The translations under genes were made by a program, and so were the position numbers. From Spisula solida (taxonomy: Eukaryota; Mollusca; Bivalvia; Venerida; Mactridae), in the NCBI GenBank assembly GCA_947247005.1, contig OX365956.1, positions 8,514,089-8,578,088 on the forward strand: a DNA stretch of 64,000 nucleotides, written 5' to 3'. Positions 12,301-18,300 of the stretch are shown piece after piece. The notes below the pieces were generated by a model. That model had not been told where the DNA came from, searched no databases, and saw nothing but the letters and a program-made list of their open reading frames with translations. Position 1 is the stretch's first letter. Each line of letters opens with the position of its first letter.

Positions 12301-15300
12301 CGATTTTCAATTCTATTATAAATCTTTTTCATATTGTAATCTTGGGATTTAACTGCTGTACTTACTTAGACTACTTCACTTTTCTGATTTGTCTTAAAAT
12401 TATTTTTAGGTGACATCAACTGGAGTACCAAAGATAGTTGATCTGATAGATGCTACTGGTTCTGGTGATGTTGATACATCTACTGTGGTTGAAGTGAAGG
12501 ATGGAACGGTGAAAGGTCTTACTGGTCGCACATTGCAGGTTAGTGCTTTTGAAACTAGTCAATAAATCCGGTTTTGTTGTTGTAATTATTTTCTGAGAGG
12601 TTACAAGGTAAGAACTTGGTGATTCAGGTATGAAATTATTAGCAAGTATTGTTCAAGCTAGAATTGAAGAATTTGCCAATCCACTAGCAAAACCATCCAT
12701 TAGCAAAACCACAGGCTCTTGTAAAAAAATATACGAGTTCTTAAAGACTAGTAGTGTTAAGAGTATAATTTTTTGCCAGTGTTGTTTGCACCGAGAGCCT
12801 GTGGCCTGAACAAGTATAAACATGTACTAAAATCAGAAAGGCACCATACTGTACCTACAAATTGTTAAAATCAATGGATTTGTTTCCAGTAAGCAAAAAT
12901 ATAATCACTAAAATTAATTTACTGTAAAATCATTATTTTTGTGACCCAGTGTTTAAACTCTCCTATACCGGTATGTTTACTAAAAAATCTTTGTGTAATT
13001 GTAACAACTTACATTCCTTTTATTGTTGAGTTTTATTTTAACTACACGGTATGTGCGCAGAAACATATCCAGAAAAGTGCAGCTATCATGTGGTTATGTT
13101 AAGCTTGACAGGTAAAATAACTAGACAGTACAAATGTATATAAAATGTATAATTTTAGATTCCAGAATATTGGACAATAGAAGATAAAGTACATGTTGGA
13201 TTGAAGAATGCGTATGATCTATATCCACGTGCATTAAAAGATAGAGTATGCAAGGAAAGAAGAGAGAAACAATGGGACCCTCTCAGTAGAGATGCTGTTG
13301 CTGCAGCAACTAAAGCATTAGAAGACTTTGACATTGCTCATCCAAACTCTACAACTCAGGTAATACTGTGGTTTTATGAATTTTATGAATTTTCGTTGGA
13401 ACGTTTATTATACCCCGAGTTGTAAGGGGGGGTATACTGGATTCAGCTTGTCTGTCCGTCAGTCAGTTTGTCCGTAGACGCATTCTTGTGGACCTAACTC
13501 CTCCTACAGTTTTTGCAGCATTTGCTTCGAACTTTAACAGATGAACAACCTTAACATGTAGATGTGCTTAAAGGAAAGAATTTGCGCTGCGACAATTTTT
13601 GACAGAATTATGGCCCTTTGTACTTTTATGCACTATACAATATATAGTGAACAGTTCTTGTGGACGCAACTTCTCCTACAATTTTGCAGCAGGATTCCAT
13701 TTAAACTTTGGTACATGAACAACCTGAATATGTAGATGTGCATGAACAACCTGAATATGTAGATGTGCATGAACAACCTGAATATGTAGATGTGCATAAA
13801 CAACCTGAATATGTAGATGTGCATAAAGAAAAAAATTAGCTGCAATAGTTTTTGCCATGTAGGGGGTATGTTAGTCTGCCGAATGGCGACAGTTCTAGTT
13901 TCTCAAAGGTTGAGCAGCTGCTGATCCCTAAATTCTAGTAACCAACAAATTATTTAACCATTAGTCTGTAAATGTCTAATCCGAAAACAAGACTAGGCAT
14001 TTTGTTATCTTGTACTTCATAAGTTTGAAGGTGTATTGGAGACACTATGTTGTTACATGTGTGTAACGGGACTTGTCGGAAATATTTATAATATTTCCCG
14101 CTGTATCTGGCCATGTGCCCTGCAAAGTATGTGGTTAAAGGTGCCAGTAAGCTGTGTATCGGTGCTATATTTATTTTTGACTGCTATATCTGACCATCTG
14201 ACCGTGTGTGATGCAAAGTATCTGGTTAAAGGTTCCAGTAAGCTGTGTATCAGTGCTATATTTATATTTCCCGCTATATCTGACCATGTGTGATGCAAAG
14301 TATCTGGGTAAAAGTGCCAGCATGCTGTGTATCACATTAAAGAACCAGCTGTCAATTCGAAATAAGAGCTAGGCGCACCTCTGCAGCGACGGACATGCCT
14401 GATCTAATGTCTCTCTCCCTTCAGGGGCTTTCTCTCAGTCTGTCTCTCTGGTCAGATCATGCTGTATCTGCACTGATAGAGGATGTACCCAATCCCTTGT
14501 GGATGCAACACTATATATGTAAAGTGCCTTTGAATGTGTGTTCGCAATAAAAAGGTGCTATATAAATCTGGTATATTTATTTGGTGAGTTGGTCCATCAG
14601 TTGGTCTGTTAGCAATTTGTGGAGCAAACTACTTATCATTATCTTCCTAATCTCAACACTACTTGGTCAATTCTTTTCAAAAGTTAGATGAATTTGAAAT
14701 CAAGTCCACAATTATTTGAAAGTACAAACATTGAAAATATTTCTGTTATAGTGCAAGTATGATTTTACAATATTTTTAGGAAGAAAAGTTAGAGAAGGAC
14801 AATCTTCAGGCACAGCTGGATGTTCTAACTGAAGCAGATAAGAAATATTCAGATTGTGGACCAGTGTATGATTGTGTTGTATTCTATGATGGCGAGACTT
14901 GGAGGTAAGTGCATGAGTGTGTTGTATTCTATGATGGGGAGACTTGGAGGTAAGTGTATGAATGTGTTGAATTCTATGATGGAGAGACTTGGAGGTAAGT
15001 GTATGAATGTGTTGTATTCTATGATAGAGAGACTTGGAGGTAAGTGTATGATTGTGTCGTATTCTATGATAGAGAGACTTGGAGGTAAGTGTATGAATGT
15101 GTTGTATTCTATGATAGAGAGACTTGGAGGTAAGTGTATGAATGTGTTGTATTCTATGATAGAGAGACTTGGAGGTAAGTGTATGAATGTGTTGTATTCT
15201 ATGATAGAGAGACGTGGAGGTAAGTGTATGATTGTGTTGTATTCTATGATGGCGAGACTTGGAGGTAAGTGTATGATTGTGGTGTATTCTATGATGGCAA

Positions 15301-18300
15301 GACTTGGAGGTAAGTGTATAATTGTGGTGTATTCTATGATGGCAAGACTTGGAGGTAAGTGTATGATTGTGGTGTATTCTATGATGGCAAGACTTGGAGG
15401 TAAGTGTATAATTGTGGTGTATTCTATGATGGCAAGACTTGGAGGTAAGTGTATAATTGTGTTGTATTCTATGATGGCAAGACTTGGAGGTAAGTGTATA
15501 ATTGTGGTGTATTCTATGATGGCAAGACTTGGAGGTAAGTGTATAATTGTGGTGTATTCTATGATGGCAAGACTTGGAGGTAAGTGTATAATTGTGTTGT
15601 ATTCTATGATGGCAAGACTTGGAGGTAAGTGTATAATTGTGGTGTATTCTATGATGGCAAGACTTGGAGGTAAGTGTATAATTGTGGTGTATTCTATGAT
15701 GGCAAGACTTGGAGGTAAGTGTATAATTGTGTTGTATTCTATGATGGGGAGACTTGGAGGTAAGTGTATGAATGTGTTGTATTCTATGATAGAGAGACTT
15801 GGAGGTAAGTGTATGAATGTGTTGTATTCTATGATGGAGAGACTTGGAGGTAAGTGTATGAATGTGTTGTATTCTATGATAGAGAGACTTGGAGGTAAGT
15901 GTATGATTGTGTTGTATTCTATGATAGAGAGACTTGGAGGTAAGTGTATGATTGTGTTGTATTTTATGATAGAGAGACTTGGAGGTAAGTGTATGATTGT
16001 GTTGTATTCTATGATAGAGAGACTTGGAGGTAAGTGTATGAATGTGTTGTATTCTATGATAGAGTGACTTGGAGGTAAGTGTATGAATGTGTTGTATTCT
16101 ATGATAGAGAGACTTGGAGGTAAGTGTATGAATGTGTTGTATTCTATGATGGGGAGACTTGGAGGTAAGTGTATGAATGAGTTGTATTCTATGATAGAGA
16201 GACTTGGAGGTAAGTGTATGAATGTGTTGTATTCTATGATAGAGAGACTTGGAGGTAAGTGTATGAATGAGTTGTATTCTATGATAGAGAGACTTGGAGG
16301 TAAGTGTATGATTGTGTTGTATTCTATGATAAAGCGACTTGGAGGTAAGTGTAACAGGGTGAGAAATATGTGCAGCTGGACCTGGGCTTAAACCTGGGAC
16401 CCTTCACTTACTAGATACGGAATGATTTTAATAATTTGAAACTGGTTAATCATTGGTATGAAATCGAATTGAACCGGGTAATCGGCGGCCATATTGAACC
16501 TGGTGTTTTCTTTTATGACAACCATATCAATGTACTTTCAGCAGCAGAATTCATGCATGTTTATTTATTCTTCGAGGTGTACAATAGTAATTAAAATAGG
16601 GTTAGCTATTAGACATTAGAGTAAGAAATTAAAATTAAACACTGCGCACAAAGCTCATATAAAATTTAGTGTCTAGTGAACATTTGTATCACCCTGTACA
16701 TATATATTACAGGGCTTGTGTGGATACGAGCGAGGAAGGAGATCTGTCACAATGTAAACTACTTACCAATTATAATGAAGAAAGACAGTTCGGAACACTA
16801 ACTAAAGATGGTATGTTTAATGTAAATCAACTTTATATTTGTTTGATCTTTATTTCCCTGATTTTGGTATATCAGACTTTTCGCAAATTTATAAATTTTT
16901 GGTCAAAGGTTCCAGGATTGGTCTTCATGTTTAACATACTGAAGTATATTTATGCAGATTTATGAATTCTCAAAGAACTCTGAAGAGCGAAAATAAAAAT
17001 TCACAAAATTGTAACTAGACATCAGTGTTTCATTTTGGTCCTACTGTAGTCCCGAGATTTTGACTCTAAAAATTGACTTGGGACATGCAGTGAGTTTGAA
17101 TTTATTTACTCAGTGTATAAATGAGTCATCATCCGGTTATCGCAATAAGGCATGCACATTGAATTGTATAGTCTTTCAATAAGTCATACAGTGATTGGAA
17201 ATCACATAATATATGCTTTTGCTCACAATAATTCGTACAAATTGAATTGTAGACTATCCCAATAAGTCATACAGTGATTTGGTTTATACGCTGTGATTTA
17301 AGTTGCTATCAACTTAATGCCAATTCTCAACAGTATTTTAATCAATTGACCTAACAAGTCAGTGTCCTGTGAAAGAAGGAGGATGAACATCCAACATAAT
17401 TATCCTGTCATTACTGGTTGTCGCTATTTTGTTTAGCAATGCCTGTTAAGCTCTTAAATATCAAGCAGAAGAGATGAAGTGCTTCCAAAGATTAGAAGAG
17501 GCCCAATCAATTTAATGTGAAGTTATGGAAACTCTTCTGTTTGCCCAAATGAACCGGCAAATAGTAATGTTATATATAGTAATATTTATGCCTCCCATCT
17601 TTGATGAGGGGTATATTGCTTTGCACCTGTCTGTTTGTCTGTAGACTTAATGATTTCCCTTTAATAACTCAAGAACGCTTTGCCCTAGGATCTTCAATTT
17701 TTACTTGGATGTTGGTCATCAACAGTAGATGACCCCTATTGATTTTAAGGTCAGTAGGTCGAGGTCACTGTGACTATTGGACTGCCATGGGGGTAAAGGT
17801 TTGTTACAAACATCTTTTTTTCTTTGATTAACTATAATTGCTACGTCTATGTTTGTTCGTGATTTTAGACATGTTAAACTACAGCATTAACATCTACAAT
17901 GAGGGGAATACCTTGGAAATTGTTACCAATGCAGGTAAGAATTTACCATACAGTCGTTGTATGTTAGATATTTACATATTCCTTCTCCAAACTCGTATAA
18001 ATTATGGCAGAAATCCTGAAACTTGCCGGCCCGACGAACAAGTCCGGAAGATTTTGATATGGTCCAACGTTTTTCAATCCCAAACCAGTCCGACTGACTG
18101 GCCTTTATCCACAACAGTTTACTGTCATTTATCAAAATGGCTTATTTTAACAACTATTACGATGCGCAAACATATATAAAGACAAATCAAACTGCTTCGA
18201 ACACACAAGACTAAAGAAACAGGAAAGCACATACTTTCCATGAAAATTAATTTTATGTCTCCCATATTAGTCGGAGAGTCATATTAATTTTGTGCTGGAT

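What the first reader, a model, noticed from the sequence alone, without database searches (positions are those of the whole stretch)
14865..16350. Thirty-three tandem, identical-core splice donors at one TPP2 exon end
The 45-bp minisatellite unit straddles the exon 4/intron 4 boundary, so AG|GTAAGT is repeated 33 times at exact 45-bp spacing. The unit length is a multiple of 3 and, in the TPP2 frame, each unit reads W-R-stop. Using donor 1 gives TPP2; using donors 2-33 gives a premature stop and probably nonsense-mediated decay. The spliceosome must pick the first of 33 near-equal sites. The array could be a tunable brake on TPP2 or a local U1 snRNP sink, or may be tolerated through strong exon definition. 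Copy number would be expected to vary between individuals.
Basis: partly seen in the sequence, partly recalled or inferred. Interest (0 to 1): 0.9.

Follow-up and report, generated by a model that had tools for sequence, protein, structure and literature searches.

The report
Clam gene with 33 tandem splice donors
In a clam, the end of one exon of the TPP2 gene and the start of the next intron have been copied 33 times in a row, so the cell must pick the first of 33 almost identical cutting signals; human factor VII has a smaller array of the same kind, so this is an extreme case of something known rather than a new mechanism.

Summary
A 45-bp unit spans the exon 4/intron 4 junction of an intact 27-exon TPP2 gene; TGGAG|GTAAGTG occurs 33 times at exact 45-bp spacing. 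The genome is probably Spisula solida. All 32 downstream donors would give the same 206-aa truncated protein.

Donor 1 has no computed advantage: U1 pairing -11.8 against -12.6 for six of the other 32, which all share one sequence; accessibility ranks 24, 17 and 24 of 33. Its use must depend on position or exon context. Human F7 intron 7 is the precedent: homologous 37-bp repeats, only the most upstream donor normally used (PMC6627357).

Sampled genome holds 39 minisatellites in 190 kb, and the same gene carries a mirror-image array of three acceptors at exon 22; about 0.6 of 52 junctions would be straddled by chance. Most likely a slippage-grown passenger, tolerated because the first donor is used. 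Nothing in the sequence requires a brake or U1 sink, but with no transcript data neither is excluded. Copy-number variation was untestable; the paralogue search did not complete.

The parts
6368..41786 (+). TPP2 gene (tripeptidyl-peptidase 2), coding region, 27 exons, 1243 aa, intact frame
   Evidence: tblastn and splice model; 1039 of 1247 aligned columns identical to Mactra antiquata TPP2; Peptidase_S8 and TPPII_Ig-like-1 in the first 615 aa
14780..14904 (+). exon 4, ends TGGAG in phase 2
14905..16712 (+). intron 4 (1808 nt), containing the other 32 donors
14863..16353 (+). 45-bp minisatellite, 33 units; unit 1 is the last 42 nt of exon 4 plus GTA
14902..14912 (+). donor 1, GAG|GTAAGTGC, the one that gives TPP2
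14947..16352 (+). donors 2-33, all GAG|GTAAGTGT, every 45 bp; each would give the same 206-aa truncated product
14863..14868 (+). exon side of the inferred 6-bp microhomology AGTGTA at the duplication breakpoint
16348..16353 (+). intron side of the inferred 6-bp microhomology AGTGTA (inferred original intron start GTAAGTGTAACAGGG)
16713..16810 (+). exon 5, the shared acceptor for all 33 donors
36433..36724 (+). mirror-image array in the same gene: 97-bp unit x3 carrying the exon 22 acceptor; acceptors at 36488, 36585 and 36682, only the last giving TPP2

Best explanation
A 45-bp tandem duplication, probably formed across a 6-bp repeat (AGTGTA) shared by the end of exon 4 and the start of intron 4, copied the splice junction itself. 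Later unequal exchange or slippage raised it to 33 units. Units 2-33 lie in the intron. The array persists because the splicing machinery pairs the exon 4 acceptor with the first donor (the shortest exon, made first), as in human F7 intron 7, so the array is largely neutral for TPP2. Shown: anatomy, frame, intact gene model, no computed strength or accessibility advantage for donor 1, an abundance of minisatellites in the sampled genome, and a second junction-spanning array in the gene. Inferred: origin by microhomology, use of donor 1, neutrality.
For: Intact 27-exon frame, 1039 of 1247 columns identical to Mactra TPP2. Of the 120 listed homologues (of 2297 hits), 119 align without a gap within 12 residues of the junction, the donor-1 form; the exception, P0055, lacks a nearby stretch. 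6-bp AGTGTA at both inferred breakpoints. 39 arrays of at least 3 copies in 190 kb of sampled genome, 0 of 39 with a donor motif. Expected 0.59 of 52 TPP2 junctions straddled, P(2 or more)=0.12; permutation of the gene's 5 units gives 12.3% with 2 or more. Exon lengths in this gene are 66-248 nt; exon 4 is 125 nt with donor 1 and 1565 nt with donor 33. Only the most upstream donor of the homologous F7 repeats is used normally (PMC6627357, passages).
Against: No transcript data. Another literature rule says that the intron-proximal of two comparable donors is favoured (PMC6002489, passages), which would predict donor 33 and loss of TPP2. Exon length alone does not separate donor 1 (125 nt) from donor 2 (170 nt) or donor 3 (215 nt). 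The donors downstream pair slightly better with U1 than donor 1. The donor core is slightly more invariant than shuffled columns (P=0.023 for the 9-nt core), which could hint at constraint. A second TPP2 copy was not excluded: the protein search of the genome did not complete 13 times; the DNA search with the exon end found only this place.
Confidence: 0.72

Rival explanations
1. Copy-number-tunable brake: a fraction of pre-mRNAs uses donors 2-33, hits the TAA after codon 206 and is destroyed by NMD, so longer arrays give less TPP2.
For: All 32 downstream donors give the same premature stop. The downstream donors pair slightly better with U1 than donor 1 (-12.6 against -11.8; six of 32 computed, the rest share the sequence). 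Intron-proximal preference is reported for comparable donors (PMC6002489, passages).
Against: In F7 only the first donor is used normally (PMC6627357, passages). Minisatellites are common in the sampled genome and the stop follows automatically from phase 2 plus GTAAGT, so neither needs a regulatory reason. No transcript data either way.
Confidence: 0.1
2. U1 platform: units 2-33 are not cut but bind extra U1 snRNPs just downstream of donor 1 and strengthen definition of exon 4.
For: U1 bound downstream of a natural donor can enhance exon definition (PMC5933811, abstract). The reported U1 footprint (23 nt upstream plus 12 nt downstream, PMC6002489, passages) is shorter than 45 nt, so neighbouring sites need not exclude each other.
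Against: Donor 1 is already one of the strongest in the gene (second of 26 on a hand-set score; third by U1 duplex energy), so exon 4 hardly needs help. No binding data.
Confidence: 0.1
3. Incipient intron gain or recursive splicing: AG|GTAAGT in each unit serves as acceptor and donor, and the array is removed in steps.
For: Each unit has AG|GT; tandem AGGT duplications have yielded introns in other genes, including a 24-bp tandem in fission yeast (PMC4974935, passages).
Against: As acceptors the 33 unit sites score -8.8 to -5.8, against -1.3 to 6.8 for the 26 TPP2 acceptors of the model, on the same ad hoc scale.
Confidence: 0.03
4. Assembly artefact: the array is an error or an inflated copy count.
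For: Long tandem arrays are a weak point of assemblies; a single haplotype was seen here.
Against: 17 distinct unit sequences, partly in blocks; if the genome is xbSpiSoli1.1, it was assembled from 31-fold PacBio HiFi reads (PMC11101916, passages).
Confidence: 0.04

Closest known systems
Human coagulation factor VII (F7) intron 7 repeat (37-bp units, donor in the first unit)
   Same: Homologous repeats start at an exon end, the natural donor lies in the first, and the most upstream site is the one used normally (PMC6627357, passages).
   Different: 45-bp units, a multiple of 3; 33 copies (F7 has about 5-8, recalled; the passage says only a variable number); a mollusc and an unrelated gene; use of the first donor not shown here.
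[quoted passage not shown] ATP2A1, potato RdRp, fission yeast SPOG_01682)
   Same: A tandem duplication carries an AGGT or a piece of an exon-intron boundary; in potato it crosses an intron-exon boundary (PMC4974935, passages).
   Different: Here only donors are multiplied, with no good acceptor in the unit. The potato case resembles the exon 22 acceptor array more.
Alternative 5' splice sites coupled to NMD
   Same: Downstream donors add a premature stop.
   Different: Use of those donors and any regulation are undemonstrated; 32 alternatives encode one identical product.

Membership tests
F7-intron-7-type donor-spanning minisatellite | Repeat unit spans the exon-intron boundary and repeats the natural donor | tested here: met
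   33 donors every 45 bp from the exon 4 end
F7-intron-7-type donor-spanning minisatellite | Downstream donors comparable in strength to the natural one | tested here: met
   -5 to +7 identical in 33 of 33; U1 duplex -11.8 for donor 1 and -12.6 for the six others computed, whose sequence the remaining 26 share
F7-intron-7-type donor-spanning minisatellite | Only the most upstream donor is used normally | not testable with these tools
   no transcript data; only the intact frame and homologues point that way
F7-intron-7-type donor-spanning minisatellite | Copy number varies between individuals | not testable with these tools
   one haplotype available
Intron gain by AGGT tandem duplication / recursive splicing | Unit supplies a usable acceptor as well as a donor | tested here: not met
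   33 unit AG sites score -8.8 to -5.8 against -1.3 to 6.8 for the 26 acceptors of the model; ad hoc score
AS-NMD switch | Alternative site introduces a premature stop with downstream exon junctions | tested here: met
   32 of 32 stop after residue 206; 22 later introns in the model
AS-NMD switch | Alternative site is used and regulated | not testable with these tools
   no RNA data
TPP2 | Subtilase domain and TPPII Ig-like domain, full length | tested here: met
   Pfam (first 615 aa only); 1243-aa model aligned along its length to Mactra TPP2

The most novel reading that the evidence does not exclude
Array length sets TPP2 output. With 33 near-equal U1 sites that could be occupied together, units 2-33 either leak a copy-number-dependent share of transcripts into NMD or act as a multi-U1 enhancer of donor 1, so that natural length alleles form a graded series for first-donor choice.
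Probability: 0.15. Interest if true: 0.75.

Novelty: new member of a known kind. Interest (0 to 1): 0.45.

Why it matters
How a spliceosome chooses between equal donors is unsettled: one literature line favours the intron-proximal site (PMC6002489, passages), another the most upstream by oriented scanning (cited in PMC6627357, passages). Here nature has made 33 donors with an identical core at one exon, where only the first can give a working enzyme and every other choice encodes the same truncated protein from a distinguishable mRNA. Length alleles, if they exist, would make the rule measurable in a living animal. The second, acceptor array in the same gene suggests that junction-spanning arrays may be frequent in minisatellite-rich genomes and usually tolerated (inference).

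Tried and rejected
Selection on the donor core: shuffled columns give P=0.093 (run of 12 or more) and P=0.023 (9-nt core), too weak for a claim. Local RNA structure hiding donors 2-33: not supported; donor 1 ranks 24, 17 and 24 of 33 in accessibility at three window sizes. Stronger donor 1: not so. Unit as acceptor: rejected. Array as part of a dispersed repeat: the DNA search gave 16 matches, all inside the array; that tool skips common words and scores only best candidates. Coding constraint on units 2-33 was not formally tested. Junction check of homologues by regular expression matched 69 of 120 and missed 51; I replaced it by alignments. The first gene-model script stopped with an error after leaving 2 of 26 introns unsolved and several poor; anchors were corrected by hand.

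Literature: 0 papers held all of minisatellite, splice donor, tandem, exon-intron boundary, and 0 all of bivalve, minisatellite, splice site, intron. Searches (3 listed; 15 listed of 1,435) showed nothing on such arrays by title and start of abstract; these were not read. Borensztajn et al. 2006 is not held; I saw it only in the reference lists of PMC6627357 and PMC2423196 and as cited in PMC6627357. Passages of PMC5389562 and PMC3778950 gave nothing used here.

Full report
What is there. The window lies at C14:8514089-8578088 of a 931,988,947-base genome in 36 contigs. Its longest contig among those seen is 69,026,595 bases and another is 52,684,369, against a longest scaffold of 69.0 Mb, N50 of 52.7 Mb and 932.1 Mb in 38 scaffolds for Spisula solida xbSpiSoli1.1 (PMC11101916, passages); S. 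subtruncata has 930.8 Mb in 151 scaffolds (PMC11249531, passages). I take it as S. solida, an inference; the count of 36 against 38 is unexplained. The plus strand carries a complete TPP2 coding region, 27 exons, 6368-41786, 1243 aa with no internal stop, 1039 of 1247 aligned columns identical to Mactra antiquata TPP2. The model was built against that protein, so splice sites were chosen by homology plus a rough hand-set site score.

The array. Exon 4 ends at 14904 in phase 2. From 14863 a 45-bp unit repeats 33 times to 16353 without an indel. Donors start at 14905 and end at 16345, all 32 steps 45 bp; positions -5 to +7 are identical in 33 of 33. There are 17 distinct unit sequences; unit 9 is identical to the coding unit 1, and units 10-19 form a homogeneous block 2-3 differences from it. 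AGTGTA occurs at both inferred breakpoints, in the exon at 14863 and at the intron edge at 16348, which suggests a microhomology-mediated first duplication (inference). The invariance of the donor core is only weakly beyond chance for so homogeneous an array (P=0.093 and 0.023).

Consequences of donor choice. Every donor from 2 to 33 adds TAA directly after codon 206, so all 32 give one 206-aa product; the stop lies 41 nt (donor 2), 86 nt (donor 3) and 1436 nt (donor 33) upstream of the extended exon end, and 22 further introns follow, so NMD is expected (inference). The stop is inherent in phase 2 plus GTAAGT. In 119 of the 120 listed homologues (of 2297 hits) the protein is ungapped within 12 residues of the junction; P0055 is the exception.

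Why donor 1. Donor 1 ranks second of 26 TPP2 donors on my score and third by U1 duplex energy, but its copies are equal or slightly better: -11.8 for donor 1 and -12.6 for the six others computed (2, 3, 9, 10, 21, 33), whose sequence the rest share. Local accessibility does not favour it (ranks 24, 17, 24 of 33). So U1 pairing and computed structure do not explain use of donor 1; position or exon context must. TPP2 exons are 66-248 nt; donor 1 gives 125 nt, donor 33 gives 1565 nt, so exon definition could reject far donors but not obviously the first few. For those, 5' to 3' choice is needed (inference). [quoted passage not shown] Against this, the intron-proximal of two comparable donors is said to be favoured, by an unknown mechanism (PMC6002489, passages).

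Is it special here? In 19 sampled 10-kb loci (190 kb, positions picked by me) there are 39 arrays with unit 20-200 bp and at least 3 copies; 0 of 39 units hold VAGGTRAGT, while in the window 1 of 7 does. Founding units cover about 1.1% of positions, so 0.59 of 52 TPP2 junctions would be straddled by chance and two or more have P=0.12; a permutation of the gene's five arrays gives 12.3% for two or more. Two are in fact straddled: the donor array, and a 97-bp unit present three times at the exon 22 acceptor (acceptors 36488, 36585, 36682), where the two upstream acceptors lead to premature stops. The sample is small and my estimate ignores selection.

Verdict. The most likely account is a tolerated slippage product that depends on first-donor choice; a dosage effect remains possible and is the most interesting untested reading.

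Noticed in passing
36433-36724: 97-bp unit repeated three times across the exon 22 acceptor of TPP2: three tandem acceptors, mirror image of the donor array; upstream two give premature stops.
   Followed up: yes
61577-64000: 35-bp array of about 70 copies that reaches the window end.
   Followed up: no
14712-16403 and 14849-16387 (-), 14829-16067 (+): Long open frames (563, 512 and 412 aa) through the array; a by-product of a 45-bp unit, not evidence of genes.
   Followed up: no
533-1228 and 4163-4714 (-): Retroelement fragments: reverse transcriptase (RVT_1) and zf-RVT Pfam matches.
   Followed up: partly
56093-59677 (+): Exon-like frames resembling methylmalonyl-CoA epimerase, by recalled resemblance only; the 57448-57855 frame has no Pfam match.
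   Followed up: partly
50480-50896 (-): 138-aa open frame that looks protein-like to the eye, no Pfam match.
   Followed up: partly
13714-13824: 27-bp array, 4.1 copies, 98% matches, in TPP2 intron 3.
   Followed up: no
L009-L027: The sampled genome is dense in minisatellites: 39 arrays in 190 kb.
   Followed up: partly
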